Shown here: piece after piece, positions 23,610-33,665 of the stretch
How the letters are laid out: each line of letters starts with the position of its first letter
Position numbering within the stretch: the stretch's first letter is position 1
DNA from: Candidatus Iainarchaeum sp.
GTDB taxonomy: Archaea > Micrarchaeota > Micrarchaeia > Anstonellales > Bilamarchaeaceae
Length of the DNA: 52,522 nucleotides
Direction: 5' to 3'
Assembly: GCA_028714535.1 (NCBI GenBank)
Contig: JAQTME010000008.1
Coordinates: 1 to 52,522, forward strand
Notes under the pieces: generated by a model
Database searches by the model: none
Seen by the model: only the letters and a program-made list of their open reading frames with translations
Told to the model about the DNA's origin: nothing
Made by a program: the position numbers and the translations under genes

Positions 23610-24017
23610 ATGAAGGTACTTACGATAGTTGCGGACGACAAGGTGGGGCTTCTCGCGGACATATCATACATACTCAGCAAGAGCAGGATAAACATCGACT
23701 CCGTGAACGTGGATGTCGTGTCCGGAAAGGCGATAATAACGCTCAGCATATCAGACGTCATCAAGGGCAAAACAGTGCTCGAAGCTTCTGGCTACTCGGT
23801 CGAGGGCGGCGAGGCGGTCATAGTGAAGATGCCTGACCAGCCCGGCGAGCTCAACAGGATAACCGCCATGCTGTCCAAGGAGAGCATAAACATAGAGAAC
23901 GTGCACACCCTGTCCAAGGACGGCAAGAGCACAGTGCTTTCCATACGCACGGACAAGCCGAAAAGGGCTGCGACGGTCCTCAAGGCCTACCTCATAACCA
24001 GGGAATCGACCTACTGA
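23610..24017 (+). CDS. Double ACT-domain protein
   Basis: The protein has 135 residues. The ATG at 23610 has an upstream GAGGTGG ribosome-binding sequence; the GTG at 23601 is inside it. Two ACT domains are visible: VLTIVADDKVGLLADISYIL (1-70) and VIVKMPDQPGELNRITAMLS (about 73-132), with the glycine turn DKVGLL and DQPGEL where amino acids or other small ligands bind. It is a stand-alone allosteric-type regulator. It overlaps the 3' end of the opposing NFACT gene by 7 bp. Confidence 0.9.
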   Translation: MKVLTIVADDKVGLLADISYILSKSRINIDSVNVDVVSGKAIITLSISDVIKGKTVLEASGYSVEGGEAVIVKMPDQPGELNRITAMLSKESINIENVHTLSKDGKSTVLSIRTDKPKRAATVLKAYLITRESTY

Positions 24018-25003
24018 AGCTCGATTTCCAGCGATTTCCCCTTCTTGTCTATCTTCGCGCCCAGCTTTTCCAGCTCTTCGAATTTCCCTTCCTTGGCCAG
24101 CGCCAGCAGGCGTTCTATTTCCGCGTAGTGCGCGTAGATGAAGTCGCCCTTCTGCTTGTCCAGCTTCTCCTCTTCCATCAGTTCCTGCAGCCTTTCCTTC
24201 TGCTTCTCCAGCCTGCGCACGAGCTTTTCCGCCTCCGGGTTCGGCAACTCGACGTTGGCGTAATATTCGTCGGCCGCCTCTGACAGCGACGCGCATGCGC
24301 GCGCTTCGCTGCCCTTGTGCCTGGAAAGCCGGGCGAGCGCGAAATCAACAGGCTTGCCGTTCTCGTAGAAGATGACGGGCTTGGCGGACGAGCGCAGATT
24401 CTCAAGCTCCTGCTCCAGCCTGAGCAGCTCGCCGCTGCCCAGCTTGTTTCCGGGCGTCTTCTCATCGATGCCGGCCCTGGCTAGCGCCTCTGCGGCGTAT
24501 TCCTTGCCGAATGGCAGCTTCATCAGCGAGACGATTATGTACCTGTCGGACGTTTCGAGCGCAGGCGGAGGCGCTGCGGGAGGCGAATATGGCTTTCCTG
24601 CCGCGATTTCCCTTCCGGCCCATTTCTCGTATTTCACCGCGCACAGCGTGATGCCGTTGCGGACCAGGATTGCGTTGCCCTTGCCGAACATCTCGAAGAC
24701 GAGCGCGCCCTTGTCGAACGTGAATGAGACTATGCGGTCGTTGTTCACCTGCTCCAGCGAGAGGAGCCGGGCGTTGTCAAGCTCCTTCGCCGCCTTTTCG
24801 GTGAACTTGTCGCCTTCGGCTTCGGTGATGTAGCGCGTCTCGTGGATGCGGACGCCAAGCTCGCACAATATCTCGCAGGTGCCGATTTTCATGCGATAGG
24901 CGTTCTCGCCCAGCTTCCTGATGCGGCCGAAGTGCTTCCCGACGATTTTTGGCGCAAGCTCGGCTGTGATGAATGAGTATTCCAGCGCTGACATTTCATG
25001 CAT
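24011..25003 (-). CDS. Shortened NFACT (Rqc2/RqcH-like) protein
   Basis: The protein has 330 residues. The start MHEMSALEYSFITAELA and the segment NNDRIVSFTFDKG (with the conserved DR pair of NFACT-N) identify the N-terminal domain. A helix-hairpin-helix-like part (about 155-205) and the first coiled coil (LVRRLEKQKERLQELMEEEK) follow. The protein ends in the coiled coil, so the second coiled-coil half and the NFACT-R domain found in full archaeal RqcH (about 600-700 residues) are missing. RqcH homologues act in ribosome-associated quality control. An internal ATG at 24994 is an alternative start. Confidence 0.85.
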   Translation of the reverse strand: MHEMSALEYSFITAELAPKIVGKHFGRIRKLGENAYRMKIGTCEILCELGVRIHETRYITEAEGDKFTEKAAKELDNARLLSLEQVNNDRIVSFTFDKGALVFEMFGKGNAILVRNGITLCAVKYEKWAGREIAAGKPYSPPAAPPPALETSDRYIIVSLMKLPFGKEYAAEALARAGIDEKTPGNKLGSGELLRLEQELENLRSSAKPVIFYENGKPVDFALARLSRHKGSEARACASLSEAADEYYANVELPNPEAEKLVRRLEKQKERLQELMEEEKLDKQKGDFIYAHYAEIERLLALAKEGKFEELEKLGAKIDKKGKSLEIELQ

Positions 25004-25026: not shown

Positions 25027-25034
25027 CTTAAATG
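25027..25034. promoter_or_regulatory. Shared bidirectional TATA element (NFACT / caspase-like giant)
   Basis: CTTAAATG lies between the NFACT start at 25003 (about 27 bp) and the TTG at 25055 (about 26 bp), which are 52 bp apart. It argues that the giant protein starts at 25055, not at the ATG at 24998, which is upstream of the box. Confidence 0.6.
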
Positions 25035-25054: not shown

Positions 25055-28000
25055 TTGAAGGGGATAATCATAGGGAAATTCAAGATAGCGGATGGTGCAG
25101 CCGCGGAAAAGCAGCTGCTGGAGGCCGTTCCCAGTGTCGCAGCGCCAAGCAGCACCTACGTTCCGGTGCGGCTTGAGAGAAGCATAGTGGAGAAGCACGC
25201 CCTTGCAGTGAATTTAGAAAACGCCGCCGAAAAGATCAGGCTGGCGAAGAAGTGCAATGAGGAGCTGTGGGCCATCCCGGAAAAGGGCAGGGAGAAACTG
25301 CTGGGTCAGATGGGCTACACCAAGGAGCAGATAAAGTATTACATGGGCGGGCTGGACTATTTCAACGACTATAACAACGCCATCATCACCCAGGCGAAGT
25401 CCATTGTCAAGAACGGCGCGACGGTGAAGGATCCGAAGCTCAGGGAGGCGATGACGAAATCAGCCAATGCCCTTGCAGGTAGCATCCTTGTGGCCTACAC
25501 ACCATACATTCTGTGGAAAGCCAAAGAGGCGAGGGCCAGCGAAGCCGCAAAGGCGCTGACACAGCTTGAAGATGCGCATTCTTACGTCGCCTACGCCAAG
25601 ATGTTCAATCTGTATAGCATGAAGGGCGACATAAACGGCAAGACAGCCTACGTGGCCGAAACGAATGGAGGCCTTGAGGCGAGGTATTACCGGCTGCTTG
25701 AAGCGCATCCGTCAGCCGTCAAGGCCAAGAGCCTGGATAGCTATAGGAAGGCGGTGGATGAGTTCTACAAGTACCACTCGGAATATTCACAGAAGCAGAT
25801 GGCCAGCTTCCAGAGCGAAACGGAGATAGGCAAGGCCAGGGGCCTGGAAAAGGCACGCCTCATCGCAAGCCCGTACATGGAAGCGTCGGTTCCCCTGTTG
25901 GCGGCAGGTCTGATGGGGGTTGGAGGCCCCGGCGGCTTCGCATTGGGCGCGTTCTATTTCGGCAATCAGGCAAAGGAATCGTTCGGAAGCGGCCACTACA
26001 TAACAGGCTCGCTTATCTCGCTGACGCTGATGACCCCATTCTTCTCGGCACTGAGGGCGACTCCCGTAGCCGCGGCGCGGACCGCAGGCAGGCTTGGCGG
26101 CGCTGCCAGTGCAGGGGCAGGGCTCGTATTCCAGGTCGGCATGGCGAAGGATGCGTTCAGCATAGTGTTTGACGCGTCCAGGACTGGCTGGACCAGTCAG
26201 GACGCCGCTGCGCTCATGAACATAGGCGGATTCATGGCAATGCCCCTTGCCAGCGCCAGGGCTGCAAAAGCTGCCGGGCCTAAAGAGGGGTTACAAACGA
26301 CTGGTTTCCTGGCAGCGCAGCCAGAACCAATTGGGAAGCCGAGGATGAAGATGGCTGACGCTAAAGAGGGTGCGGGTCCAAAGGAGAGCGGGGGGACCAA
26401 CGTCCAGCTCAGCGAAGCGTCGCTCAAACCCATCCGCGACAAATATGGCAGCATCGTAGGGATTATGGAAATGATCGTGCCTGCACTGGCCGATGCGGTG
26501 GCAAAGGAATCCGATAAGGATAGCATCTGGGGAACAAAGAAAAGCGCTGAAAGTTTTGCAGAGGAACTTTGTGCGCCAGATGCCGTGAAGGCAGCCATGA
26601 CGTACAAAAACAATCCTGAAGTCGCCGCAACAGTGGTCCTGCAGTTCCTGCACTCGGCCCAATACCGCAGGGATGTGAATGAAGCGGCACGGAACCTGTC
26701 GAGGAAGGAGGTCGTAGATGTGCTCGGCCGCATCCGGGTGGATATCAAGACCGCAGAAGGCATTGCCAAGCTTTTTGCTTCCACGAATGACTTGGAAACA
26801 CGGGCGTGCTGCCGTACGATAATGGGGCTACTGAAAATCCCTGGTGCACTTGAAGGGGTCGTGGATAGCTTCCCACAAGCTCTGGCAATGCACTGGCCGA
26901 GAAACTTGGAGGGGTTGGACAAGCCGGAAGTGATGGCTGCCCTATCCAGATATGCGGCCGTACCTGAGGCTGCAAGGACCGTAGCATATTCACTTACCGA
27001 GGCAGTGATGAATAGCAGGGATTTGACACAGCTGGCAGTCAGACTCGCGAAACCAGAGGTGGTTCGTGCGATAACCGCACTCGGAAGTGTGCCCGAAGCC
27101 GCAGAAGCGATGGCAGGTTCTTTCGCAGCGCTGGCGGCACGGAGCGAAGGCAATCCAGTGGCAGTCGCAAAGAAGATTTTGGACCCGAAAATGGACATAG
27201 ATGCGATAGTCAGGGGCATTAAAGGCCCTGGGGTTGCCGCCAGCTTGAAAAGGGATATTGCCATCTACCTGTTCGGTGTTTCTTACAAACCGTCCCTAGT
27301 GGCACTTACCTTTGAGATTTGCGGTGAAGCAGGAAAATCAAGGGGGCGCCAGACAGGTACGGCTGTACTTTCAGACGTGGCTCGGCTAATGAAAACGCCG
27401 CAATTGGCAGATAAGGTGGCCAGGGCCTTCCCGGCCCTTGCAAATGGGAAAGTGAATCCGGAAGTGATTGCAGAAGGGCTGAAAAAATTCGATGCGCCGG
27501 ACCGGCAGAAGATTATGAGCGAGTATTTCCACCTCTTCTTTGCGAAGGATGATAGAGCCGCAGCGAAGGAAAATGGCCTGCGAGAGGAGAATTTAGCATA
27601 TGAAAGGTGGGCGGGCTATGGTCCGGTTGATTGGGATTTTAAGACAGGGTATGAAGCGTGGGCCAGGGTATTGGAGGTGGAGGGGGAACGTCCCGGCATA
27701 TGTTCGGCGCTATACAAGCAGAATGGGATAAGGTTCTTTGAGAGGTATAGCATGCCGACCCTTCTGCGCATTTACGATAATCTGGGTAAGCGAAAAAAGG
27801 GTAAACCAGTCCTGCTCGTATTCACTGGGGTGGCGGACCATAATGGTGCGTTCAAGCCCAAGCCGGTCAGTATGCTTCAGGCGGTTCGGGAACAGGACAT
27901 CATAGGCGACTTCTGGAAGGATTTTGACGTGCACATCGTCGAGGCGGGAAGCAGGTACGAAGCGGCGAGAAGGATAATAGGCATCAGCAACACGTACGGG

Positions 28001-28375
28001 AAACCGAAGGTCCTGTATTTCAACGCCCATGGCAATGTCGATCGAGCGAAGCTCGGCTGGAAAGAGGATGAGGTAGTCAATGTGAAGGGCCTTGTCTCCG
28101 GCGCCGACCTTTCCAGGTATTTTGATGAACGCCCCACCGTCGTTCTTGCATCGTGCTCAACTGGTGCAAAAGGCGGATTTGCAGAGCAGACGCAGGCGCG
28201 ATTCGGAAATACGCTAATGTACGCTCCGAAAATTCCCACTGCCACAAACAGCGTGAAATTTTTGGGGATGACGGGGGGTTGGGCAATATTTGATGTTGCA
28301 TATGCTGAAGGGGACATAACGGCCGAGTTCACACCCAAAAATAAGCAGGTTGGCAGCATCGCTTCGAATAAGTAG
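25055..28375 (+). CDS. Giant protein with C-terminal caspase-like (clan CD) peptidase domain
   Basis: The protein has 1,106 residues from the TTG. Residues about 1-270 are helical. Residues 270-420 hold hydrophobic Gly/Ala-rich segments (VPLLAAGLMGVGGPGGFALG, ITGSLISLTLMTPFFSAL). Residues about 490-840 contain HEAT-like repeats (KPEVMAALSRYAAVPEAART, KPEVVRAITALGSVPEAAEA). The C-terminal about 200 residues look like a caspase/gingipain-type fold: VLLVFTGVADHNG, then VLYFNAHGN with His992 and TVVLASCSTGAKG with Cys1034, the His-Gly and Ser-Cys dyad context of clan CD. It is an intracellular candidate protease; activity and trigger are unknown. Confidence 0.8.
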   Translation: MKGIIIGKFKIADGAAAEKQLLEAVPSVAAPSSTYVPVRLERSIVEKHALAVNLENAAEKIRLAKKCNEELWAIPEKGREKLLGQMGYTKEQIKYYMGGLDYFNDYNNAIITQAKSIVKNGATVKDPKLREAMTKSANALAGSILVAYTPYILWKAKEARASEAAKALTQLEDAHSYVAYAKMFNLYSMKGDINGKTAYVAETNGGLEARYYRLLEAHPSAVKAKSLDSYRKAVDEFYKYHSEYSQKQMASFQSETEIGKARGLEKARLIASPYMEASVPLLAAGLMGVGGPGGFALGAFYFGNQAKESFGSGHYITGSLISLTLMTPFFSALRATPVAAARTAGRLGGAASAGAGLVFQVGMAKDAFSIVFDASRTGWTSQDAAALMNIGGFMAMPLASARAAKAAGPKEGLQTTGFLAAQPEPIGKPRMKMADAKEGAGPKESGGTNVQLSEASLKPIRDKYGSIVGIMEMIVPALADAVAKESDKDSIWGTKKSAESFAEELCAPDAVKAAMTYKNNPEVAATVVLQFLHSAQYRRDVNEAARNLSRKEVVDVLGRIRVDIKTAEGIAKLFASTNDLETRACCRTIMGLLKIPGALEGVVDSFPQALAMHWPRNLEGLDKPEVMAALSRYAAVPEAARTVAYSLTEAVMNSRDLTQLAVRLAKPEVVRAITALGSVPEAAEAMAGSFAALAARSEGNPVAVAKKILDPKMDIDAIVRGIKGPGVAASLKRDIAIYLFGVSYKPSLVALTFEICGEAGKSRGRQTGTAVLSDVARLMKTPQLADKVARAFPALANGKVNPEVIAEGLKKFDAPDRQKIMSEYFHLFFAKDDRAAAKENGLREENLAYERWAGYGPVDWDFKTGYEAWARVLEVEGERPGICSALYKQNGIRFFERYSMPTLLRIYDNLGKRKKGKPVLLVFTGVADHNGAFKPKPVSMLQAVREQDIIGDFWKDFDVHIVEAGSRYEAARRIIGISNTYGKPKVLYFNAHGNVDRAKLGWKEDEVVNVKGLVSGADLSRYFDERPTVVLASCSTGAKGGFAEQTQARFGNTLMYAPKIPTATNSVKFLGMTGGWAIFDVAYAEGDITAEFTPKNKQVGSIASNK

Positions 28376-28421: not shown

Positions 28422-29102
28422 ATGGACCAGGAGGCAGAGCTTCTCAAAGCCCTTGGGAAGGACGGGCTCGAGCAGGCAATCGATGCCAAAATCAGCTCGT
28501 TCCACGGGCTGCTGACGCGCGATGCCGCCCTCAGGCTGATTGCGAAGGAAAGGGGCCTCATCAGGGAAAAGGAATGCACCCTGGCCAAAATCCCAAAAGG
28601 CGCGAGGGAGGTAAGCTTCAGCGCCAGCGTCAGGAAAATCTGGCCGGTCGCGGTTTACCCCTCAGGGAAACGCTCGCGCGTGGTCGAGGTCGCTGACAAC
28701 GAAGGCGCCAGGCCGCTCGTGCTGTGGAACGGGGACGTCGAAAAGGCCGGGGGGCTGCGCACCCGCGACAGGATAACTGTGCACGGCGCCTATGAAAGGG
28801 GCGGCGAGCTGCACCTGGGCCAGGGCGGCGCGCTAGAGATTTCACAAAAGGCCGCGTTCGCACCGCTGGGCTCGCTCGAGGAAGGCCAGGAGGCGCACGT
28901 CCGCGGCGTCGTAACCGCAGCGGAGGGCTTCGCGTTCACCATCTCTGACGGCAGCAGTGAAAGGCGCTGCGTGATGCGCCAGGGGCTTGACAGGGCGGCG
29001 AAGATACGGCCGGGCGACGAAGTGATAGTAGAGGACGGCCGGGTAACCCGGGGCGACATAGACATATCCGCCAGCAGGCTGCTGGTGAAAAGGAAAATCT
29101 GA
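28422..29102 (+). CDS. OB-fold nucleic-acid-binding protein (RPA-like)
   Basis: The protein has 226 residues. The N-terminal 45 residues (LGKDGLEQAIDAKISSFHGL, DAALRLIAKERGL) match the helical module in front of many archaeal RPA subunits. One OB fold follows (about 65-140; RVVEVADNEGARPLVLWNGD, DRITVHGAYERGGELHL), then a probable second OB fold (about 150-226; EEGQEAHVRGVVTAAEGFAF). It presumably binds single-stranded DNA in replication or repair. No zinc finger is present. Promoter spacing suggests a leaderless mRNA. Confidence 0.85.
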   Translation: MDQEAELLKALGKDGLEQAIDAKISSFHGLLTRDAALRLIAKERGLIREKECTLAKIPKGAREVSFSASVRKIWPVAVYPSGKRSRVVEVADNEGARPLVLWNGDVEKAGGLRTRDRITVHGAYERGGELHLGQGGALEISQKAAFAPLGSLEEGQEAHVRGVVTAAEGFAFTISDGSSERRCVMRQGLDRAAKIRPGDEVIVEDGRVTRGDIDISASRLLVKRKI

Positions 29103-32629: not shown

Positions 32630-32663
32630 CGCAGATTGTCTTAAAAAGTGTTTGTGCAGGCAA

Positions 32664-33665
32664 ATGATAATAGGTAATTCTATGAGTGGGCCAGGCAGTG
32701 TTGAAAAAAAAGGCGACCAGCCCCACCCAGGCAGCGGGTGCGTGCAACAGAAGAAAACGCCTGGCGTCATAACCGCATATGTCAGAGGCAAGGACCCCAT
32801 CTTGGACACTCTGCTCACAGAGCTGGAGACGCTAAAGGCCACCCACGGCAGGGTGGTGGGGGCGGCCGGCGACGAAATGATGGCCCACCGCAAAACGCAA
32901 GAACGGCTGGAGACGGCGCTGGCCTCGGCGCGCCACGCAGAGAAACTGCTGGATCAGGAAAAGGCGGCGTCGGCGAGGCTGTCGCTCGTCATATCCTGGA
33001 TACACCACGACCTGAGGACCCCGCTCACGGTCGTCATTGGCTACGCGCCCATGCTCAGTGAGGCGCTATCAGGTGCCGTGCCTAAAGGCGTGGACCCAAA
33101 GCACCTGGCAAACCGCATAGAACGCAGCGGCACAAGGATGCACCAGGCGCTGGACATGGCCAGGGACTACCTGCGGCTTGTGCCAGGCCTGCTTCAGATT
33201 GAAACCGGAAGGGTGGACCTCTGCGGGGAGGCGGCCGATGCGGCGGGAATCATGGGGCAGAGGGCCGCGGAGAAGGGCCTCGCGCTGGAACACAGCCACG
33301 CCTCGGGGGCTTATGCCGTGGTGGACCAGAAGCTGCTGAGGCACGCGCTCATCAGCCTCATCAGGAGCTCGATCGCATGCGCCCCGAAAGGCAGCACGGT
33401 GACCCTGGCCGCGGGCGCAGCGGATGGCCGTGCGACCATAAGCGTGAGCGACATAGGCAAGGCAGTGACGAAGGAGGAGATGGCATTCGCATTTGGCACT
33501 CCTGAAGCAGGGGAAAGCATCGGGGAGACGGACTTCAGGGGGCTCGGCTTGATTGTCGCCAGGGCGTTCACAGAACGCATGGGCGGCACGGTCAGCGTGG
33601 ACAGCGCTGAGGGGACCACCACGGTCACCATGGCATTTCCGCTTGCGCAGCAGGCACAAAAGTAG
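32664..33665 (+). CDS. Orphan cytosolic histidine kinase with altered ATP site
   Basis: The protein has 333 residues from the ATG at 32664, about 20-24 bp after a TTAAAAA box; an ATG at 32682 is an alternative. The H-box is SWIHHDLRTPLTVVIGY, phospho-acceptor His115. In the ATPase domain the N-box Asn is replaced (LISLIRSSIACAPKG), the G1 box reads VSDIGKAV instead of DxGxG, while the G2 box RGLGLIVARAF is intact. No transmembrane segment, PAS or receiver domain is visible. No response regulator gene lies nearby. Activity is therefore uncertain. Confidence 0.85.
   Translation: MIIGNSMSGPGSVEKKGDQPHPGSGCVQQKKTPGVITAYVRGKDPILDTLLTELETLKATHGRVVGAAGDEMMAHRKTQERLETALASARHAEKLLDQEKAASARLSLVISWIHHDLRTPLTVVIGYAPMLSEALSGAVPKGVDPKHLANRIERSGTRMHQALDMARDYLRLVPGLLQIETGRVDLCGEAADAAGIMGQRAAEKGLALEHSHASGAYAVVDQKLLRHALISLIRSSIACAPKGSTVTLAAGAADGRATISVSDIGKAVTKEEMAFAFGTPEAGESIGETDFRGLGLIVARAFTERMGGTVSVDSAEGTTTVTMAFPLAQQAQK

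What the first reader, a model, noticed from the sequence alone, without database searches (positions are those of the whole stretch)
25055..28375. Roughly 1,100-aa protein ending in a predicted caspase/gingipain-type peptidase
The C-terminus has a Rossmann-like strand pattern with VLYFNAHGN (His992) and TVVLASCSTGAKG (Cys1034), about 42 residues apart, the typical clan CD His-Gly...Ser-Cys arrangement. It is preceded by HEAT-like repeats and hydrophobic Gly-rich segments reminiscent of membrane-inserting regions. Long regulatory arm plus caspase-like protease is the plan of immune or cell-death effectors, not commonly described in such small archaea. The gene is divergent from an NFACT quality-control gene.
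Basis: partly seen in the sequence, partly recalled or inferred. Interest (0 to 1): 0.8.

Follow-up and report, generated by a model that had tools for sequence, protein, structure and literature searches.

The report
Archaeal caspase-like protease with helical arm
A tiny, probably host-dependent archaeon (Micrarchaeota) carries a large protein ending in a caspase-like cutting enzyme, and it belongs to a mix-and-match family of conflict-type proteins, so such weapons or death switches may be common in these poorly understood microbes.

Summary
The window is Candidatus Micrarchaeota; the 1,106-aa frame at 25055-28375 is intact. Its C-terminal ~240 aa is a clan CD (caspase/CHAT-like) cysteine peptidase domain. 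AlphaFold gives pLDDT 85.7; the best PDB folds are caspases, the T6SS effector Tce1 (DUF4347) and SAVED-CHAT. D928, E963, H992, G993 and C1034 are invariant in 42 aligned relatives. Pfam alone sees almost nothing (CHAT E=0.23). The helical repeats are real.

(2) The window's peptidase belongs to a clade of long modular proteins. Its N-terminal helical/hydrophobic module is joined elsewhere to GNAT, ankyrin or other modules. (3) Where the peptidase is internal, a kinase-like domain follows, and a small partner gene abuts that kinase-like gene in 6 of 6 cases, a polymorphic-toxin layout. (4) The gene fills a variable insertion site (NFACT/OB-fold) that is empty in most congeners. In one congener the site holds a repeat protein with a different caspase-like domain.

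Best reading: a modular effector with a peptidase warhead, delivered to other cells (favoured) or acting inside. Activity is untested. New variant of a known kind.

The parts
25055..28375 (+). Whole gene, 1,106 aa from a TTG start (an upstream ATG at 24998 is possible but overlaps the NFACT start)
   Evidence: open frame; TATA-like CTTAAATG at 25027 and 51-bp spacer equal to that of the empty sites
25027..25034 (+). Promoter-like TATA element CTTAAATG, 28 nt upstream of the TTG start
   Evidence: compared with TTTAAATC about 30 nt before the OB-gene start in the window and relatives; inference
25112..26290 (+). N-terminal all-helical module (aa ~20-412), its second half Gly-rich and hydrophobic (aa ~267-412)
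   Evidence: shared at 26-36% identity with long proteins of other families that carry other C-termini; predicted helical, pLDDT about 60-89 over aa 41-410; no fold match
26405..27649 (+). Alpha-helical repeat arm (aa 451-865), about 43-aa repeats
   Evidence: self-similarity 78 and 60 vs shuffle maximum 50; helical but low-confidence model
27641..28372 (+). Caspase/CHAT-like cysteine peptidase domain (aa 863-1106)
   Evidence: alignment A1, AlphaFold pLDDT 85.7, pTM 0.85, Foldseek to caspases, Tce1 and SAVED-CHAT
27836..27838 (+). D928, invariant Asp just after strand 1 (D-x-NGAF motif); possible S1-pocket acid
   Evidence: invariant in 42 sequences; role inferred
27941..27943 (+). E963, invariant Glu at the end of strand 2
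   Evidence: invariant in 42 sequences
28028..28033 (+). H992-G993, predicted catalytic His and following Gly
   Evidence: invariant; after strand 3
28154..28156 (+). C1034, predicted nucleophile in ASCSTG
   Evidence: invariant; after strand 4
24011..25003 (-). NFACT-family gene, divergent; left edge of the variable insertion site
   Evidence: found in 16 of 17 genomes of the genus, beside the OB gene in 13 other genomes
28422..29102 (+). OB-fold-type gene, right edge of the insertion site
   Evidence: its start lies about 52 bp from the NFACT start in six congeners that lack the insert; OB-fold is an assignment by eye

Best explanation
A modular conflict effector of a Micrarchaeon whose warhead is a caspase/CHAT-like cysteine peptidase. 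The N-terminal helical, partly hydrophobic module would insert into or cross a membrane (inferred). The helical repeat arm would bind a target or hold the peptidase inactive until it does (inferred, by analogy with separase and Csx29). The C-terminal peptidase, with H992 and C1034, would then cut a protein in the target cell or release itself (dyad shown by conservation and fold, activity inferred). Relatives use similar modules with the peptidase placed just before a kinase-like C-terminal domain that has an abutting partner gene. The family therefore behaves like polymorphic toxins, in which caspase-like domains act as processing peptidases when internal and as toxins when last. In the window the peptidase is last. 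I favour delivery to a neighbouring or host cell over action inside the producer.
For: Fold and dyad. Module swapping: the same N-terminal module in five proteins with different C-termini (ankyrin L031, GNAT L035, a HEMVH zincin-like motif by eye in L063, unknown L033, peptidase in the window). The hydrophobic sub-module is in 19 of 301 genomes, with HATPase, GNAT plus methyltransferase, or ankyrin modules. Peptidase internal and followed by a kinase-like module in L034, L036, L053, L069. An unannotated partner gene of about 205-235 aa lies directly 3' of all 6 strong kinase-module genes and nowhere else in 301 genomes. Insertion site: empty, about 50 bp, in six congeners; filled with unrelated cargo in others. 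The window's peptidase domain falls in the long-protein clade, 99/96 support. Zhang et al. 2012 describes this internal/terminal use of caspase-like domains (PMC3482391). The best non-caspase structure is Tce1, a T6SS putative cysteine protease effector (PMC13323088).
Against: No signal peptide was seen by eye, no secretion system was looked for or linked, and the N-terminal module matches no known translocation domain. The window gene has no partner or immunity-like gene; its 3' neighbour is a conserved gene. Short relatives (36 of 42) are mostly plain repeat arm plus peptidase without the hydrophobic module, as expected of an intracellular sensor-protease. No peptidase activity is shown. Kinase identity rests on motifs and weak profile matches.
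Confidence: 0.48

Rival explanations
1. Intracellular immune or cell-death protease: the repeat arm senses a virus or damage and activates the caspase-like domain, which cuts a cellular protein and stops the cell, as in Csx29 or SAVED-CHAT systems.
For: Most relatives are simply repeat arm plus peptidase (36 of 42 in the tree); seven diverged paralogs in tandem in G032; patchy presence (7 of 17 in the genus) and a variable insertion site, as for defence genes. One congener has a repeat arm homologous to that of the short relatives but with a different caspase-like domain, next to a HepT gene, at the same site. Structural likeness to SAVED-CHAT.
Against: No PADLOC match to the peptidase or the window protein; only the ankyrin part of L037 matches. 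No recurrent neighbour, effector or substrate gene next to the peptidase-only members in this sample. The hydrophobic module and swapped enzymes of the window's own clade are not explained.
Confidence: 0.3
2. Endogenous regulatory or surface-processing protease with a normal cell function, separase-like in plan: helical arm plus C-terminal caspase-like domain.
For: Arm-plus-caspase anatomy as in separase and Csx29 (PMC10028731); an intact frame with its own promoter-like element.
Against: Absent from most congeners and in a site otherwise empty; extreme divergence and tandem expansion are unlike a housekeeping gene.
Confidence: 0.12
3. Non-proteolytic domain: the fold is used for binding, the His and Cys being structural.
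For: Some caspase-like repeats in toxins lack catalysis (PMC3482391); no activity is shown.
Against: His and Cys are invariant among 42 sequences that differ nearly everywhere else.
Confidence: 0.07

Closest known systems
Tce1 (PA0256), DUF4347 putative cysteine protease effector of the Pseudomonas aeruginosa H3-T6SS (9qpe)
   Same: Best non-caspase fold match, TM 0.62 on Tce1; best PDB profile hit, E 0.0038; His and Cys in equivalent positions along the profile
   Different: 310 aa, loaded in Hcp; no helical arm or hydrophobic module; 16% identity
DUF4347 (PF14252)
   Same: 25 of 42 relatives match, best 2.6e-7
   Different: The window protein itself does not match
CHAT peptidases: Csx29 (TPR-CHAT) and SAVED-CHAT
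   Same: Repeat arm plus caspase-like domain (Csx29); SAVED-CHAT is a fold match
   Different: CHAT profile only E 0.23; no CRISPR or SAVED partner seen beside the gene; repeats are not recognised TPRs
Caspases / C14 and C80 (TcdB, MARTX autoprocessing domains)
   Same: Caspase fold; internal position before an effector domain in some relatives, as in MARTX/TcdB (from general knowledge)
   Different: No C14 match in the genome; C80 only E 0.2 in one relative
Bacterial polymorphic toxins with caspase-like processing or toxin domains (Zhang et al. 2012, PMC3482391)
   Same: Swapped C-terminal modules, peptidase internal or last, small gene directly 3' of the C-terminal module in kinase-bearing relatives
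   Different: Archaeal, none of the recognised delivery domains, different partner family, and the window gene has no partner

Membership tests
Clan CD (caspase-hemoglobinase fold) peptidases | Sheet order with His-Gly after strand 3 and Cys after strand 4 | tested here: met
   strands 57-63, 96-102, 122-128 (then H130-G131), 166-170 (then C172) in the model; Foldseek to caspases E 2e-5
Clan CD (caspase-hemoglobinase fold) peptidases | Conserved His/Cys dyad | tested here: met
   invariant in 42 of 42
Clan CD (caspase-hemoglobinase fold) peptidases | His and Cys side by side in space; peptidase activity | not testable with these tools
   no coordinates returned; needs a structure and an assay
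CHAT (PF12770) | Match above the family cut-off | tested here: not met
   11.3 bits against a cut-off of 24; 3 of 42 relatives match, best E 5.3e-4
DUF4347 (PF14252) | Match above the family cut-off | tested here: not met
   no match for the window protein; relatives up to 2.6e-7, so a distant kin family
Peptidase C14 | Match to PF00656 | tested here: not met
   0 in the whole genome
Polymorphic toxin systems | Shared N-terminal part with swapped C-terminal domains | tested here: met
Polymorphic toxin systems | Immunity-type gene directly 3' of the toxin gene | tested here: not met
   met only for the kinase-bearing relatives, 6 of 6; the window gene is followed by the conserved OB gene
Polymorphic toxin systems | Recognised export or delivery domain | tested here: not met
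   no Pfam or PDB match to the N-terminal module
Csx29 / TPR-CHAT | Partner Cas7-11 and TPR repeats | tested here: not met
   no TPR match; ORFs directly beside the gene are NFACT and OB; a genome-wide Cas7-11 search was not made
Known anti-phage defence proteins | PADLOC match | tested here: not met

The most novel reading that the evidence does not exclude
Micrarchaeota hold an archaeal, MARTX-like class of multi-module effectors (hydrophobic delivery module, helical arm, caspase-like processing or killing peptidase, swappable enzymes including a kinase-like domain with a cognate partner) that these symbionts use on their host archaea or on rivals. The window protein is a protease-armed member.
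Probability: 0.35. Interest if true: 0.85.

Novelty: new variant of a known kind. Interest (0 to 1): 0.62.

Why it matters
How DPANN archaea act on their hosts and rivals is largely unknown. A recognisable, mutable enzyme (C1034) in a recurring modular family, with a defined partner gene in its kinase-bearing relatives and an empty-site control in congeners, makes that question testable. It also adds a caspase-like lineage, invisible to Pfam in the window's own protein, that may link separase/CHAT-like arm-plus-protease proteins with secreted effectors.

Tried and rejected
Pfam, PADLOC and NCBIfam scans of the window protein or its peptidase domain: nothing significant. Single-protein scan of genome contigs: no relative; an alignment-derived pattern found 8 loci, all Micrarchaeota. 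Viral contigs and plasmids: none. Fold search of the N-terminal part: no significant match, and the model is poor beyond residue 410. Paralog repeat profile on the window arm: no match, so the window repeats are only generically similar. Recurrent neighbours of peptidase-only members: none convincing. The PVGGTAF linker peptide as a cleavage site: rejected, only in two proteins, one of them without the peptidase. DUF4347 as the family name: cut-off not reached.

Full report
The gene at 25055-28375 (+) is an intact 1,106-codon frame. The relatives found in a named collection are all Candidatus Micrarchaeota, and the window's genome is 1.14 Mb in 34 contigs. A TATA-like element 28 nt before the TTG at 25055, and a 51-bp gap to the divergent NFACT start, favour that start codon.

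The peptidase domain. Family libraries barely see it: CHAT at E=0.23 and no C14 in the genome. A whole-genome search of 99 relatives with the protein found related C-termini in many of them. Forty-two such domains align with only D928, E963, H992, G993 and C1034 invariant. Scanned one by one, 25 of the 42 match DUF4347, best 2.6e-7; by profile the nearest solved chain is Tce1, E=0.0038. AlphaFold with this alignment gives pLDDT 85.7 and pTM 0.85. Foldseek ranks caspase-3, Tce1, procaspases, CED-3 and SAVED-CHAT first. The strand order and the positions of His-Gly and Cys are those of clan CD. The domain is therefore a clan CD peptidase by fold and dyad; activity is inferred.

Distribution. With the alignment as profile, 42 of 301 Micrarchaeota genomes hold the domain, 7 of 17 in the window's genus. 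One genome has seven tandem paralogs (pairwise 35-46% over the long matches) plus two more. These short members mostly have a repeat arm of similar helical units (HEAT or armadillo-like, ankyrin in one) followed by the peptidase. A tree puts the window's domain in a separate, supported clade (99/96) with domains from long proteins.

Architecture of the window's clade. The first ~412 residues form a helical module whose second half is Gly-rich and hydrophobic. The same module starts four other long proteins from other families of the order, which then carry ankyrin repeats, a GNAT domain, a HEMVH motif, or nothing recognised. Its hydrophobic half alone is found in 19 of 301 genomes, in proteins with histidine-kinase-type ATPase, GNAT and methyltransferase-like, or ankyrin modules. 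In L034, L036, L053 and L069 the peptidase is internal and a ~300-aa C-terminal domain follows, with invariant K, D-x-x-x-x-N and I-D. It resembles ABC1/PI3K-type kinase-like folds weakly. Directly 3' of every strong member of that domain (6 of 6, overlapping or within 20 bp) lies a gene of about 205-235 aa from one unannotated family. That family was found nowhere else in 301 genomes. This is the layout of a toxin with an immunity protein, or an effector with its chaperone.

The insertion site. In 13 other genomes of the genus the NFACT and OB genes sit side by side, divergent. In six the gap is 51-54 bp and in two more about 154 and 237 bp without an evident gene. In the window the gap holds the present gene. 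In others it holds small proteins that look secreted (G005, G007, G008), a predicted membrane protein (G016), or, in G003, a HepT gene plus a 626-aa repeat protein. That protein's arm is homologous to the arms of the short peptidase paralogs (E 8e-20), but its C-terminus is a different domain with FDKxDT, FRGHS and PGSCG motifs. It is not detectably related by profile to the window's family, though similar in the order of motifs. Relatives of it occur in 6 of 43 genomes of the family. So one site has received two different arm-plus-caspase-like genes in one genus; that the second is also a clan CD peptidase is inferred from its motifs, not from a fold.

How it most likely works. Zhang et al. 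2012 describe caspase-like domains in bacterial polymorphic toxins as processing peptidases when internal and as toxins when last (PMC3482391). Both positions occur here, and in the window the peptidase is last. The most economical reading is a modular effector whose hydrophobic module meets a membrane, whose arm binds a target or controls the enzyme, and whose peptidase cuts a target protein. Shown: the fold, dyad, modules, swapping, partner gene of the kinase-bearing relatives, and insertion site. Inferred: membrane role, delivery, target, peptidase activity. The main rival, an intracellular immune or death protease, is kept at 0.3 because most short relatives look exactly like that, and because site and paralog behaviour also fit defence genes.

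Novelty. Fold and general plan are known kinds; the family, its architectures, its partner gene and its setting in Micrarchaeota were not found in the papers searched. That search covers open-licence papers only, and one directly relevant paper on archaeal polymorphic toxins (PMC6509191) was not held. Giant nanohaloarchaeal surface proteins are a different, Sec-exported type (PMC10266531).

Noticed in passing
L101:952-2829 (-), and L112-L120: A second arm-plus-caspase-like family (FDKxDT, FRGHS, PGSCG motifs) in 6 of 43 family genomes; in G003 it sits at the same NFACT/OB site, next to a HepT gene.
   Followed up: partly
L034:13414-14115 (+), L036:6661-7314 (-), L053:3181-3807 (+), L069:3768-4382 (-), L084:3621-4289 (-), L094:2321-2947 (-): Unannotated 205-235-aa gene family always directly 3' of kinase-like-domain genes; candidate immunity protein or chaperone.
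   Followed up: yes
L039:4229-18530 (-): Tandem array of seven arm-plus-peptidase paralogs with a conserved N-terminal KLSL(T/K)P motif and about 34-38-aa repeats.
   Followed up: partly
L034:6869-13417 (+), L035:6971-11875 (+): Short linker peptide (P)VGGTAF recurs between modules (four copies in L034); meaning unknown.
   Followed up: partly
L099, L100, L102 insertion sites: Families of small proteins with a hydrophobic N-terminus and a Cys, lipoprotein-like, fill the same NFACT/OB site in other congeners.
   Followed up: no
L063:5948-9541 (+): Long protein with the same N-terminal module and a HEMVH...E zincin-like motif near its C-terminus, seen by eye only.
   Followed up: no
window 32652-33665 (+): Putative histidine kinase-like frame between conserved genes, seen by eye only.
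   Followed up: no
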